From assembly GCF_904848165.1 (NCBI RefSeq), contig NZ_LR884459.1, forward strand, positions 1,984,001 through 2,048,000: a stretch of 64,000 nt of DNA. The letters run 5' to 3'. This document shows, in pieces, positions 34,339 through 45,050 of this stretch (positions within the stretch are counted from its first letter, which is position 1; each line of letters begins with the position of its first letter). This DNA is from Psychrobacter arenosus (GTDB lineage Bacteria > Pseudomonadota > Gammaproteobacteria > Pseudomonadales > Moraxellaceae). Under the pieces are notes generated by a model, which saw only the letters and a list, made by a program, of their open reading frames with translations, did no database searches and was not told where the DNA came from. The translations under genes and the position numbers were made by a program.

Positions 34339-34832
34339 AGTAAATACTCTTGTCTCAAGTGTTTAAAAAGGGCGCTTTGTCGTTATGGCATTACATACAA
34401 TGTTTTAGGCAAGTTAAGCCAAGTCTATAGCCTAGCGAAAGGCACAAGCTTAAACCAATAATAGACTTAATTGCTTACTGTTTTATGAGTCTGGTCGCCT
34501 GCGTAAGCGTGTACACGGCCGTCTTATTATAAAATATAACGGGTAAAAAGTTACCCACAACCCCAACCAGTATAAACCATATCGATAACAGATAATATAC
34601 AGGCGGTAAAGCCTGTGGTTGTAAGGTTTTAGGTTAAACAAGGGTAGATGGTATCAAAGTTATCCACAACCTATTTTAACTTATCCCCAAGGAGTTAATC
34701 TCTTTATGCCGACCCCTGCTAAAAACCCTAGGGAAATGACCCAGAATTTTACCGAGTTGCCTGAGTTGCCTAAGCTGTAAGTCGACTAAGACCTTTGCTC
34801 CGAGCTTAGTTTTTTCACTAGGTCCGGTAGGT
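34339..34832. other. dnaA-dnaN intergenic region with DnaA boxes
   Basis: No gene. It carries a perfect DnaA box TTATCCACA at 34660-34668 and TTATCCCCA at 34681-34689. Degenerate copies lie near 34551 (GTTACCCACAAC). With the cluster upstream of dnaA this resembles a bipartite origin with boxes on both sides of dnaA. The dnaN promoter must also lie here. Confidence 0.65.
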
Positions 34833-36297
34833 TTACCCGGCCTGTAGCATCATCGCCAGCGATTTATAGTCTTTATCCAAGATTGGATCCTCTGTTCTTA
34901 GTTGAGCAATCTTATCGCAAGCATGCATCACGGTCGTATGATCGCGACCACCAAACGATTGACCAATATCAGGAAAACTATCGCCTGTAAGCTCTCGAGC
35001 CAACGACATAGCGATTTGGCGCGGTCTGGCAATACTGCGGGTGCGTTTTTTGCCCATCAAATCTTTGACCGACACATCATAGAACTCAGCGACCACCTTG
35101 CGGATATTGTCCATGTTGACGGCTTGCACCCGCATCGCCACGATGTCTTTTAACGCGTATTGCACCATCTCTAGCGTAATAGGCGCTCCGGTCAAGTTGG
35201 CATTAGCGACGACTTGATTTAGTGCCCCTTCCAATCGCCGCACGTTTGAGACCACATTTTGCGCAATGAATAACGCGCACTCTTTAGGCAAATCGATCCC
35301 CAATAAGGTCGCCTTCTTTTGCAAGATTTGCATGCGGGTATCAATTTCTGGCGGCTCAATAGGAACGGATAAGCCCCAAGAGAAACGCGAGCGAAAGCGC
35401 TCATCAAACTCAGTTAATTGTGACGGATGACGATCAGATGCCAAAATGATTTGTTTATCGCCAGTAGTAAAATCTGCAAATAAAGATAAAAATTCATTAC
35501 TGCTTTTTACTTTACCTGCTAATACATGAATATCATCAACAATTAATAAATCTACTTTTTTAATTTTTTTCTTAAATTCTTCTATTTTATTATTTCTTAA
35601 AGAATAAAACTAATTGATTAATAAAATTTTTCAGAAGTGAAATAATAAAACTTCTATTTTGTTTTAAATATCTATGCGCCACAGAATGCATTAAATGAGT
35701 TTTACCCAAACCCGATGGGCCATAAATAAACAAAGGGTTATGACGGTTTTGCGATTGACGCTTGGTTAATTCATAACAGGCTTTGTAAGCTAAGTTATTG
35801 GTTTTACCCGTAACGAAAGTATCAAAGGTGAAATCGGCATTCAGATAACTAAGGGACTTAGCATCTGCTGACGATATCTGACCACTGGCGGTAGGGTCTA
35901 CCCCAGCCGCCATAGTGCTGGTCGGCGATGTTGAGCTAGCGTAGGTGCTAGTAGGCGCACTGGTGTGCATCTCATTGGCAAAGGTGTTATTGGTAGTATC
36001 AGCAAACGGAGAATCTGCTTGCGCTTCTGACTCTGCGCTGGCCGAGCTCACATTGTCTACTCGTACAATGACCTGTTTTATTTGCTCAGCACTGTGCTTG
36101 ATGACCAACTGCTCGATAGCTTGCAAATGATTTTTTTGCACATAATCGACAAAATAATTATTGGGCGCGCGGATGATAAAAGTCTCCCCATCAACTTGCG
36201 CAGATAAGGGCCTTAACCACATCGTGAACACAGTGGGCTTGACTTGATATTTTAAATCATCAAGACACTTGTCCCATAGCAACGCTGCTTCCATCAT
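34833..36297 (-). pseudogene. dnaA: Chromosomal replication initiator DnaA, frameshifted as given
   Basis: Two frames make up one dnaA. The N-terminal part (to 35590) has domain I (EAALLWDKCLDDLKYQVKPT), a Ser/Thr-rich linker, and the AAA+ Walker A (FIYGPSGLGKTHLMHSVAHRYL). The C-terminal part has Walker B (VDLLIVDDIHVLAG, readable upstream of 35444), ASDRHPSQL, and the domain IV box-binding helix (SFGGRDHTTVMHACDKI). Between 35590 and 35690 the frame is lost. Reading all frames, YFTSEKF, INQLV and YSLRNNKIEEF appear in turn, implying about three single-base indels in A/T runs; the net shift is +1. The defect lies in a very AT-rich patch (about 35465-35675). DnaA is essential, so sequence error or an unusual rescue is likelier than true loss. 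Start: ATG 36297 (GTG 36306 or ATG 36294 possible). Confidence 0.9.
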
Positions 36298-36598
36298 GCC
36301 ACTCACTCTACCCTATAATTTTATTGGTTAATCAATTTAGATGCGCTGACACGCTAGCGCGTTTTAGCAAGTTTTGGACCGTCAGCCTGGTGCTTATCTA
36401 CCGCAGGACAATGCCAGTAAAATATTCTTACTACTCAGTAAAGTCCCTACCCTGTTAGGCCACTTTGCTGTGCACAAATGACAGCGCATAGCGACGTCTA
36501 AGGGTTACCGCGAAGGTGTATTGGCGGTCCTAAATTTGCACACTGCTAGGAGAGGGGGCAATGTAACACATTTTGCCTGTGGATAAAAACCTTATTTT

Positions 36599-36634
36599 TT
36601 GGGGATAACTTTGGGGATAACTTTGGGGATAACT
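36599..36634. repeat. three 12-bp tandem repeats in oriC
   Basis: TTGGGGATAACT repeated exactly three times. Each contains the reverse complement of TTATCCCCA, a DnaA-box variant, giving boxes on one face of the helix at 12-base spacing. Confidence 0.9.
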
Positions 36635-37335
36635 TTAAAACTCGACTTATCCCTATATTACCCACAGGCTATCCACAGAGTTATCCATAGCGCAAATCAC
36701 TGTTAAATAAAGGTAATATTGACTTATCCCCAGATTATTAACTCCCTAACAATAACAAGAAATACTATTAATTAGTTATTATAGGGTCAGTACTCTTCTG
36801 TGGATAACTCTAGAAATTTAATCAATATTTCTTCGATTACGATTAAGGTTTTAGCTGATAAAACGGTTAGACAACAGGAGCTTGTAACCTTACCTCACTA
36901 CTCATCCTTAGATTAATAACAGAGATAATACTTATACTACTCAGCACAGCTAGGTTTATAAGAATCCATGTAATTGGTTAGCAAAGGAACGCAGTTTGGA
37001 CTTCGCTGCTATAGCTATGATCCACTCTAAAACGCAGCTCTAAAGTCTATACTTGTAAATATAGATTACTAGTAATCACATCATTAACAGCAGCATGAAT
37101 AACGTTAGGCGTCTCTTGGTCACTTATTTATCAAACAGAGATATCTTTAAAAATATAGTCGCACTTAGCAAAAATTTATCGCAGTTATAGCTCTCCCCTC
37201 CCCTAGCGCCATAACAAAAAAATAAGCTCACAAGGGCGCTATTTTAGAGTTAGCAAACGCTATTAACGGCATTGAAAAAGTATATAATTCACACCCTAAC
37301 CCTACAGTTGACTTGGGTTAATAGTTAATAATTTA

Positions 37336-37768: not shown

Positions 37769-38152
37769 ATGACCTTGATCTCCGTGCCCGCTGATATGTC
37801 TACCACCCCGACTACAATAGGAGCAGTTTCGCTGCCAGAATTAGCGGCTTATAAATTTACTAAAGCGCAGCGCTTGCTGACACCAACGGCCTATCGTCTA
37901 GTATTTGATGGGACAGAACGCAAGTTGCATCAAGCCCATTTAATGGCTTTTATTCGTAGTAATGAGGAATCCCAAGCTCGTATTGGCATGGCTATTACCA
38001 AAAAGAAAGTGCCTACAGCGGTAGAAAGAAATAGAGTTAAGCGACATATTAGAGAGCAATTTCGTCATTGTGCTGCGCAATTGAAATCTTATGATATCGT
38101 TTTCATTGTTAAAAAACCGATTAATGATTTAGATAATAAAGAAATTAATTAA
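37769..38152 (+). CDS. rnpA: Ribonuclease P protein component
   Basis: Protein subunit of RNase P, which matures tRNA 5' ends. From the ATG at 37769 it has 127 residues (a TTG at 37751 is possible). Family features are FTKAQRLLTPTAYRLVFDG, RIGMAITKKKVPTAVERNRVKRHIREQFR (the RNR motif) and YDIVFIVKKPI. The 3' end falls in an AT-rich patch. The stop follows GAAATTAATTAATGAG, which looks like a four-base TAAT duplication. Without it the frame would continue NEIMLSLKNK, so the C-terminus may be artificially shortened. It is seven bases from yidD. Confidence 0.92.
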   Translation: MTLISVPADMSTTPTTIGAVSLPELAAYKFTKAQRLLTPTAYRLVFDGTERKLHQAHLMAFIRSNEESQARIGMAITKKKVPTAVERNRVKRHIREQFRHCAAQLKSYDIVFIVKKPINDLDNKEIN

Positions 38153-38159
38153 TGAGATA

Positions 38160-38574
38160 ATGCTATCTTTAAAAAATAAAAAAATAATAAATGAAATATT
38201 TAAAATACATTTAATAAATTTTCTATTTATTTTGATAGGTATTTCAGGCTATCAGTTATTTATAAGCCCTATTACCTGCCCGCTGTCGTTATTATCCGAC
38301 CTGCTCAGAATATGGCCGACAAGCCTTAGCTTGGCATGGTCCTTGGCAGGGCGGTCGGCTGACCTTTGCTAGAATTTGCAGCTGCCATCCTTGGGGCGGA
38401 CATGGTATTGATTTTGTCCCCGTTCCGTTATATCGCTATACCTTTATTGCTATCACTAATGCCAGCCAGTTGCCACTAGCCTATCAGCGCTATATTTTTA
38501 TAGACCACACTAGCTACCCTGCATTTTTAAATTATTTACTTGGGGGCAAGGATAAGGTCACACCTGCTGCCTAG
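38160..38574 (+). pseudogene. yidD: Membrane protein insertion efficiency factor YidD, frameshifted as given
   Basis: The N-terminal frame reads to GYQLFISPIT. The rest of the family sequence continues in another frame: PARCRYYPTCSEYGRQAL, then RICSCHPWGGHGIDFVP, and on to KDKVTPAA with TAG at 38572. The expected ATTACCCCTGCC is ATTACCTGCC here (near 38270-38280), consistent with two C bases missing from a run of four. The conserved YidD cysteines and the CHPWGGHG box are intact in the restored reading. YidD helps insert membrane proteins and is conserved between rnpA and yidC. It is usually dispensable, so a real mutation is possible, but a neighbouring cluster of similar defects suggests sequence error. 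Confidence 0.85.
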
Positions 38575-39139: not shown

Positions 39140-40843
39140 ATGCAAAAGATATTTCGAGTGATGATCATCAGTGCGATGTTGATCACAGCTTATCTGCTGA
39201 TTTTGGCTTGGCGAGATGATTATGCCAATGCGCCAGTAACTCAGGCGGCCACCGAAAATGCAGTGACAGTTGGCTCAGATATTCCATCGACAGCTGCTGC
39301 TGGTACCGGTACGCCTACTGGAGATTTACCCGCCCAGACTACCGCAACGGGCACTGTCGCAGGAACAGATGCGATAGCGAAACCTAAGGCTGATGCTGGT
39401 CTTATTAAGGTCACCACCGATCGCTACGATATTCATATCAACCCGCAAGGCGGCGATATTGTCTATGCGGCGCTCAAACAATACGATGCTACTTTAGACA
39501 GCGAAGAGCCGTTTGTGCTGCTAGAGAATGACAGCAACCGCGTTTATGTCGCGCAGTCAGGCTTGATTGGTAAAGATGGTATCGACACTGCAGAAGGCCG
39601 TGCTAATTATCAGCATAGTGCCTCTACTTATGTCATGGGCAAAGGTCAGCAGACTTTAGCCGTGCCGCTAACCTATGAAAAAGATGGCGTGACCATTACT
39701 AAGACCTTTACCTTTACCCACGACAAGTACCCTATTGATGTGAGCTATACCATCAAAAATACTTCGAGTGCGCCTTAGGAAGGTCAATTGTTTGCGCAGC
39801 TAAAACGTGATGACAGTAAAGATCCTGGTATGTCTGATAAAGGGGCGCTTAGCATGGCGACTTATTTAGGCGGTGCTTGGGGAACTCCTGATGATCCGTA
39901 CAACAAGCTAAAATTTGGCAAGTTTAATGATGACAAGGTTAGCGTATCTAGCGATAAAGGCTGGGTGGGTATTGTGCAGCATTATTTCGTGTCTGCTTGG
40001 ACTCCGCAGAACTTCACGGGTCAATTCTTTAGCCGTGAGACTGGCGGGGATTACTTTATCGGGTTTGGTAAGCCGTTAGTGGTTGCTCCCAACAAACAAG
40101 CGATTTTAACCGCCACTTTATATACTGGTCCTAAAGTACAGTCAGAGCTTAAAGACGTCGCGGTTGGCCTTAATAAAACGGTAGATTATGGTTTACTCTG
40201 GCCGATCTCGAAGGTCTTGTTTGCGCTGCTAGAAGGTATTCATAAGGTACTGGGTAACTGGGGTTGGTCAATTATTGTATTGACGATTTTAGTGAAGATT
40301 GCGCTGATGTGGTTCTCGAATAAGAGCTACTATTCTATGGCGAAGATGCGAGCTATCGCGCCAAGACTACAAGCCTTAAAAGAAGAACACGGCGCTGACC
40401 GTATGAAAATGTCGCAAGAAATGATGGCGATTTATAAAGAAGAGAAAGTTAATCCAATGGCTGGGTGTTTGCCCATCTTGCTACAGATGCCTATTTTCTT
40501 AGCCTTGTACTGGGTACTCGTAGAGAGTATTGAGCTGCGTCATGCTCCTTGGATCCTGTGGATTCATGACTTATCGGCGATGGATCCTTGGTTCATCCTG
40601 CCGTTATTGATGGGCGCTTCAATGTTCGTGCAGCAGCAATTTAACCCGCAGCCAACCGATCCAATGCAAGCTAAGGTAATGAAGTTCTTACCGATTATCT
40701 TTACTGCCTTTATGTTGTTCTTCCCTGCAGGCCTAGTGCTTTACTGGACAGTCAACAACCTATTTAGTATGACGCAGCAATATATCGTCAATAAAAAGGT
40801 CGAAGAAGAGCAGAAACGTAAAACGGTTAAAGTAGTAAGCTAA
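39140..40843 (+). pseudogene. yidC: Membrane protein insertase YidC, interrupted by one in-frame TAG
   Basis: A 567-codon insertase frame. Residues 1-212 hold the N-terminal helix (VMIISAMLITAYLLILAW), a Thr/Ala-rich linker and the start of the periplasmic domain. Codon 213 (39776-39778) is TAG. The same frame then continues without shift: EGQLFAQLKRDD, VGIVQHYFVSAWTPQ, and the five-helix 60KD_IMP core (NWGWSIIVLTILVKIALMWF, INPMAGCLPILLQMPIFLALYW-like segment, GLVLYWTVNNLFSMTQQY). The wild-type codon was probably TGG or CAG, one transition away. YidC is essential, so error, suppression or very recent mutation must be considered. The downstream part alone could begin at a TTG (39788) but would lack the N-terminal anchor. 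Confidence 0.9.
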
Positions 40844-44480: not shown

Positions 44481-44496
44481 GGTTTCACGTGAAACT
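44481..44496. other. parS-like site 5
   Basis: GGTTTCACGTGAAACT, perfect 14-bp core, 14 of 16. Its last T is the first base of a perfect DnaA box (44496-44504). Confidence 0.8.
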
Positions 44497-44507
44497 GTGG
44501 ATAACTA

Positions 44508-44523
44508 TGTTTCATGTGGAACC
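44508..44523. other. parS-like site 6 (degenerate)
   Basis: TGTTTCATGTGGAACC, 13 of 16, 11 bases after site 5. Confidence 0.4.
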
Positions 44524-44646
44524 TTGAAAACAGGCTTTTTAGCCTTATAATTATCCGCCAAGCTTTGATTTATATAGAGTGTATTAGTACAAATAGAGTC
44601 ATGGTAATTGTATGGTTAAACACTTAACTAGCTGTGGATAAGTTTA

Positions 44647-44662
44647 AGTTTCACGTGAAAAC
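44647..44662. other. parS-like site 7 (degenerate)
   Basis: AGTTTCACGTGAAAAC, 13 of 16 with an intact TTTCACGTGAAA core. It lies six bases after a perfect DnaA box. Confidence 0.55.
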
Positions 44663-45050
44663 GTAACTAATTTGATGGTTTTCTAGAAAGTTATCCACAA
44701 GCCATCACTCGTTTTATAGCCTAGCTAGAGCCAATTTATAGTCAAGCATTGGCAAAATATAAAGGTAACTCATGAGCTATTCCTCTCTTTAGTGTGCAGT
44801 TGTACTATAAATAAATGCGTTCATTTTAAGGTTGTGTGCTGGCCTTAATCTGTTATCTTAATAAGTCAGGCAGTTTGTTAATAGCTAGCCTTATTAGCAA
44901 AGGAGATGGCTTAGTCAGGGGCGCAATCGAACCCTTTTATACCGTCACACCCTATTAGCATATTAGCCTGCCAAAAAGTCAGTCAGCCTCAAGGTATTAG
45001 TCCTATAATAGAGCTTAATCTTCTATTTTAGCGTGTCATAAAGGATAGCT

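What the first reader, a model, noticed from the sequence alone, without database searches (positions are those of the whole stretch)
35465..35690. dnaA is split by several small indels in a very AT-rich patch
Seen in sequence: the N-terminal dnaA frame ends at 35590 after NFINQLVLFFKK, while Walker B (VDLLIVDDIHVLAG) is open only in another frame. Reading frames in turn gives YFTSEKF, INQLV, YSLRNNKIEEFKKK, which together look like an intact DnaA core. That needs about three single-base indels in A/T runs within about 60 bases; the net shift is +1. DnaA is essential (established), so either the sequence is wrong here, the cell has another copy, or a slippage mechanism on A/T runs restores the frame (inference).
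Basis: partly seen in the sequence, partly recalled or inferred. Interest (0 to 1): 0.85.

Follow-up and report, generated by a model that had tools for sequence, protein, structure and literature searches.

The report
Broken dnaA is a sequencing error
The gene for the protein that starts chromosome copying looks broken in this Psychrobacter genome, but the break is almost certainly a sequencing mistake in a very A/T-rich stretch, and that stretch is itself unusually conserved across most of the genus.

Summary
In this sequence dnaA (- strand, 36306-34833) changes frame at 35594-35650: a 238-codon frame with Walker A, then a 258-codon frame with Walker B and domain IV; three single-base run-length differences, net +1; no second dnaA in the genome. 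The cause is almost certainly a consensus error. (1) A public DnaA (P0005, 487 aa, on contigs of at most 217,250 bp, so not this 3.70-Mb chromosome) is intact; it matches 257/257 C-terminal residues and differs in the N-terminal half only inside the disturbed stretch. (2) Two of this assembly's four 23S rRNA copies carry 8 and 10 single-base homopolymer shortenings and no substitution against a third copy. (3) dnaA gives one near-full-length match in 99 of 105 Psychrobacter genomes. (4) Of 133 genes matched to P. pygoscelis only dnaA changes frame. Slippage is unlikely: the runs are short. Unexplained: neighbouring yidC has an in-frame TAG. Side finding: the A/T-rich patch is real, shared by main-clade Psychrobacter, and its synonymous sites evolve at about 0.37 of the flank rate, suggesting an overlapping nucleotide-level element of unknown role.

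The parts
35590..36306 (-). dnaA N-terminal frame (238 codons, with Walker A GPSGLGKTH)
   Evidence: identical to P0005 up to the disturbed stretch
34833..35609 (-). dnaA C-terminal frame (258 codons, Walker B and domain IV); first ATG/GTG/TTG only at 35444, past Walker B
   Evidence: 257/257 identical to P0005
35594..35650 (-). cluster of three one-base run-length differences that breaks the frame
   Evidence: against P. pygoscelis; 0 gaps here among 77 relatives
35465..35709 (-). A/T-rich patch inside dnaA, shared by main-clade Psychrobacter and synonymously constrained
38071..38280 (+). second A/T-rich coding island, at the end of rnpA and start of yidD
38160..38574 (+). yidD, frame change near 38270
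39140..40843 (+). yidC with an in-frame TAG at 39776-39778 where the compared relatives have Trp
36578..36807 (.). two exact DnaA boxes (TTATCCACA) upstream of dnaA; a third lies at 34660, and three more at 44496-44699
   Evidence: 6 in the window, 0.60 expected

Best explanation
The cell has an ordinary intact dnaA. The consensus sequence is wrong at three short T runs within about 45 bases of an extremely A/T-rich patch, probably because long-read run-length errors were left uncorrected where short-read support was poor. Shown: the frame break; an intact and otherwise identical protein on other contigs; homopolymer-type errors in rRNA copies of the same assembly. Inferred: the sequencing platform, the loss of short-read support, and that P0005 comes from the same or a very near strain.
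For: P0005 is intact, with 257/257 C-terminal identity and all 7 of 230 N-terminal mismatches inside the frame-shifted segment. Two of four 23S copies lack 8 and 10 bases at 12 positions, every one in a run of 3-6 equal bases, with 0 substitutions against the 2,405,332 copy. 99 of 105 Psychrobacter genomes give one near-full-length dnaA match; the two other frame-split ones are 85% and 86% complete, and one of them (WY6) changes frame in 5 of 14 genes of a 20-kb stretch. 1 of 133 matched genes changes frame. Outside the patch DnaA shows no sign of decay. PMC12007338 (passages) reports that long-read assembly indel errors sit largely at homopolymers and that insertions often follow A or T.
Against: No reads were available. 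The 23S errors are all shortenings at the 5' 860 columns, mostly in G or C runs, whereas dnaA has one shortened and two lengthened T runs. The yidC TAG and a lost yidC codon are not run-length errors. The source of P0005 is not shown, so it could be a conspecific strain rather than this one. The genome is rated 99.98% complete. The 12 scattered stretches of this genome could not be checked for frame errors (0 genes matched).
Confidence: 0.93

Rival explanations
1. dnaA is truly and recently inactivated in this isolate and replication starts by another route, such as an integrated plasmid origin or a suppressor.
For: yidD and yidC beside it are also broken; there is no second dnaA or YidC in the assembly. 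A post-hoc estimate gives 0.0075 for three of four broken genes within five consecutive of 134.
Against: An intact and otherwise identical protein exists; DnaA boxes are kept (6 exact, 0.60 expected); yidC is essential in E. coli (recalled), so a true loss of both is hard to credit; three indels within 45 bases with no other decay of DnaA.
Confidence: 0.03
2. The indels are real and polymerase or ribosome slippage on A/T runs restores the frame.
For: The patch is very A/T-rich. PMC1088944 (abstract and passages) reports that slippage can restore disrupted frames, and says shorter runs than nine may slip in some bacteria.
Against: Longest runs are 7 and 6 bases, against about nine where selection is evident in many genomes. 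Three corrections of different sign would be needed within 45 bases. No aligned relative has the break.
Confidence: 0.02
3. The strain holds two copies of this locus, one intact and one decaying, and the assembly kept the decaying copy.
For: An intact protein and a broken gene with otherwise identical protein sequence both exist; yidC has 6 private changes against ten relatives.
Against: The assembly is one contig with one dnaA and one YidC. A decaying copy should differ elsewhere in DnaA and does not. Private changes in yidC are 2, 1 and 11 in three control proteins, so 6 is not extreme.
Confidence: 0.02

Closest known systems
Psychrobacter pygoscelis I-STPP5b dnaA (L034)
   Same: Same gene place, same A/T-rich patch, 96% identity over the C-terminal 203 residues
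   Different: One continuous frame of 489 codons
Gene-fragmenting indel errors of long-read bacterial assemblies (PMC12007338, passages only)
   Same: One-base run-length errors that split genes; seen in this assembly's 23S copies
   Different: Here three errors are packed into about 45 bases of one essential gene; platform and reads unknown
Transcriptional slippage that restores disrupted frames (PMC1088944, passages only; Thermus dnaX is its example)
   Same: A/T runs within a coding region of a replication gene
   Different: That uses one run of about nine; here are three short runs needing different corrections, and the break is not conserved

Membership tests
DnaA (chromosomal replication initiator) | AAA+ core with Walker A and Walker B | tested here: met
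   PF00308 matches in two pieces, 76.7 and 91.3 bits, both over the cut-off; the motifs lie in different frames
DnaA (chromosomal replication initiator) | One continuous reading frame | tested here: not met
   Broken at 35594-35650 in this assembly; intact in P0005
DnaA (chromosomal replication initiator) | Place beside dnaN and DnaA boxes | tested here: met
   Frames downstream and upstream (dnaN named by recall and position); boxes
Long-read consensus error | One-base changes at homopolymers | tested here: met
   Three T runs
Long-read consensus error | Intact gene in an independent sequence of the same organism | tested here: met
   P0005; same species by identity, strain not shown
Long-read consensus error | Same kind of error elsewhere in the assembly | tested here: met
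   23S copies; but only shortenings there
Long-read consensus error | Raw reads disagree with the consensus | not testable with these tools
   No reads available
Slippage-corrected gene | A run of about nine A or T at the frame change | tested here: not met
   Longest runs 7 and 6
Slippage-corrected gene | Break conserved in relatives | tested here: not met
   0 gaps in 77 aligned genes; WY6 is split at other places, in a noisy assembly

The most novel reading that the evidence does not exclude
The break is an error, but the A/T-rich patch that attracted it is a conserved nucleotide-level element written over dnaA codons of about 200-265 in main-clade Psychrobacter. It may be an unwinding site, a protein-binding site, or an unstructured mRNA segment. 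It is paired with a second A/T-rich island at rnpA/yidD on the other side of the DnaA-box region; where both were measured, the two are present or absent together.
Probability: 0.45. Interest if true: 0.5.

Novelty: not a real feature. Interest (0 to 1): 0.17.

Why it matters
A one-contig genome rated 99.98% complete can still lose an essential gene on paper, so an apparent loss of dnaA should be checked against rRNA copies and other assemblies before biology is invoked. The patch beneath the error is the more interesting thing: strong synonymous constraint inside an initiator gene near the origin suggests an unrecognised cis element.

Tried and rejected
Second dnaA: not found, only a 272-aa Hda-like frame. 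Split but working DnaA: rejected, since the C-terminal frame has no ATG, GTG or TTG before 35444 and would lack Walker B. Rare-codon pause as the reason for the patch: not supported, codon adaptiveness is at its highest there. Conserved RNA structure of the patch: not supported, consensus energy -5.36 kcal/mol over 221 columns of 16 sequences. Recent spread of the patch between species: not favoured, patch and flank third-position distances correlate (Spearman 0.63, 2,415 pairs of 70 genes). No Rfam family at gathering score and no tRNA in the window. A nucleotide gap count (115 genes, 223 events) was mostly alignment noise and was used only to place the dnaA sites. The 12 scattered 20-kb stretches matched 0 genes of the P. 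pygoscelis stretches held and served only for composition. A first 23S alignment had one copy in the wrong orientation and was redone; my note says 5 shared sites, but one search shows 6. The yidD count (60 of 64) includes the window itself and does not discriminate; one search replaces it. Paper searches did not identify the record.

Full report
What is there. The window lies at 1,984,001-2,048,000 of a single-contig genome of 3,696,886 bp, rated 99.98% complete. Its closest named relatives are Psychrobacter, first P. pygoscelis I-STPP5b with 96% identity over the C-terminal 203 residues of DnaA (80 of 262 confirmed loci were kept). dnaA is on the - strand. Its N-terminal frame runs 238 codons and stops at 35592-35590; a second frame of 258 codons starts at 35609 and carries Walker B and domain IV. 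Against P. pygoscelis three short T runs differ by one base each, at about 35646, 35623 and 35606, one shorter and two longer.

Is it real in the cell? First, the protein database holds P0005, a 487-aa DnaA on two contigs, the longest 217,250 bp, so neither is this chromosome. It is identical to the window over all 257 aligned C-terminal residues. In the N-terminal half 223 of 230 residues agree, and all 7 mismatches lie in the frame-shifted segment. P0003, P0004 and P0006 differ at a few residues and are intact too. Other Psychrobacter DnaAs differ greatly in the linker, so P0005 is the same species and probably the same or a very near strain (inference; its source is not shown).

Second, the assembly shows homopolymer errors of its own. 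It has four 23S rRNA matches. The copies at 1,197,233 and 2,405,332 are both 2,856 nt and differ by 2 substitutions. Those at 2,136,541 and 2,128,553 have 0 substitutions against the 2,405,332 copy but lack 8 and 10 bases, at 12 columns that all lie in runs of 3-6 equal bases; 6 columns are shared by both. Such a set is expected of uncorrected long-read consensus, here in two rRNA operons 8 kb apart, and not of working 23S genes (inference). Unlike dnaA, these are all shortenings, mostly of G or C runs.

Third, broken dnaA is rare and goes with poor assemblies. Of 105 Psychrobacter genomes (this one included), 99 give a single near-full-length match with an open frame of at least 465 codons; 5 of these 99 list a stop inside the matched stretch. 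The other six are this genome; G097 (coordinates as in WY6; 85% complete) and G077 (86%), both frame-split; and G108, G109 and G114 (92, 86 and 89% complete), with partial matches. WY6 changes frame in 5 of 14 genes of a 20-kb stretch.

Fourth, the surroundings are otherwise clean. P. pygoscelis ORFs from a 340-kb stretch matched 133 genes (130,848 coding bases) in 264 kb of this genome; 1 changes frame (dnaA) and 7 contain an in-frame stop. Two of the seven stops are mid-gene: yidC, 212 codons in, and a 114-aa gene, 43 codons in; five lie within 15 codons of a match end or near the 3' end. In reverse, 137 genes matched, 0 change frame and 6 contain a stop, one of them mid-gene (P. pygoscelis 788,383). 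So mid-gene stops occur in the control as well.

What does not fit neatly. In yidD the conserved core has only 3 open codons and no start upstream of it in the window, while 57 of 64 rows have a start at least 15 codons upstream; L111, L076, L038, L097 and WY6 (two rows) also lack one, so this break is not peculiar to the window. yidC has a TAG where all ten compared relatives have Trp, and five further private changes including a lost codon; control proteins have 2, 1 and 11 private changes. There is one PF02096 match in the genome. No near-identical 212-aa truncated YidC is among the database proteins of suitable length, the best of 8 hits being 70% identical, which weakly suggests that the TAG is peculiar to this assembly. 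A post-hoc estimate for three of four broken genes within five consecutive is 0.0075. I take the locus to be locally poor around two 12%-GC coding patches, but the yidC change is not explained by run-length error.

Why not slippage. The longest runs in the patch are 7 and 6 bases. Selection against slippage is evident at about nine in many genomes, though shorter runs may slip in some bacteria (PMC1088944, abstract and passages). Three corrections of different sign would be needed, and none of 77 aligned relatives has a gap there.

The patch itself. It is not an accident of this genome. In 56 of 64 rows (the window and a second WY6 row included) the lowest 120-bp GC is 0.12-0.16 in the dnaA patch and 0.03-0.17 at rnpA/yidD. 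The other 8 (L047, L101, L103, L105, L107-L109, L113) have neither, at 0.24-0.42 and 0.23-0.34. A further 17 loci lack the rnpA/yidD part and were not counted; of them 12 have the dnaA patch, and L056, L057, L065 and L100 do not (L045 holds only part of the gene). Because the two islands differ together between clades, a single ancestral change could explain the pairing. In dnaA, GC3 of 20-codon blocks falls to 0.11-0.24 from 0.35 outside, with about 98% amino-acid conservation. In P. pygoscelis this is the deepest within-gene GC3 dip of 200 ORFs (z -4.93, next -3.07); in this genome the split N-terminal frame ranks fifth of 283 (-2.91), and the first 50 codons of the C-terminal frame have GC3 0.06 against 0.52 in the rest. 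Over 70 main-clade genes (7 sister-clade genes set apart from 77) pairwise codon identity is 0.83 in the patch against 0.56 and 0.52 on either side. With 52 loci the best 50-codon windows are 0.86 in dnaA, 0.62 in dnaN, 0.63 in recF and 0.71 in rnpA; the 44-codon rpmH averages 0.85. Correcting for local codon composition leaves an excess of 0.44 against at most 0.25 in 41 overlapping control windows of the same gene. Third-position divergence is 0.37 of the flank's and correlates with it. This is what a slowly evolving overlapping nucleotide element would give. I found no RNA structure and no rare-codon cluster. The minimum of cumulative GC skew lies at window 38,980 here and at 797,770 in P. 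pygoscelis, near the rnpA/yidD island in both. No function is shown. Paper searches (5 of 5 listed, 1 of 1, 20 of 878) listed no title or abstract start that names such a patch; I did not read those papers.

Verdict. The split dnaA is a consensus error (0.93). The element under it deserves a look of its own.

Noticed in passing
window 35465-35709 and 38071-38280: Two extremely A/T-rich coding islands on either side of the dnaA/rpmH DnaA-box region, shared by main-clade Psychrobacter; the dnaA one is synonymously constrained.
   Followed up: partly
window 39776-39778 (yidC 39140-40843): In-frame TAG in the only YidC gene found, plus five other private changes including a lost codon.
   Followed up: partly
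window 38160-38574 (yidD): Frame change near 38270; several other Psychrobacter loci also lack a continuous yidD start in this A/T-rich place.
   Followed up: partly
L194 and L193 (this genome, 2128553-2131398 and 2136541-2139388): Two 23S rRNA copies 8 kb apart with 10 and 8 single-base homopolymer shortenings, within the first 860 alignment columns.
   Followed up: yes
window 44485-44700: Three exact DnaA boxes with GTTTCACGTGAAAC, a parS-like palindrome (name recalled), in an 840-bp gap between frames; a second candidate origin-region element.
   Followed up: no
L063 and L157 (Psychrobacter sp. WY6, NZ_CP049902): dnaA split by two frame changes, and 5 of 14 matched genes change frame: a noisy complete genome.
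   Followed up: partly
L142, this genome 1940964-1941305: A 114-aa gene, CbpM-like by recall, has an in-frame stop 43 codons in.
   Followed up: partly
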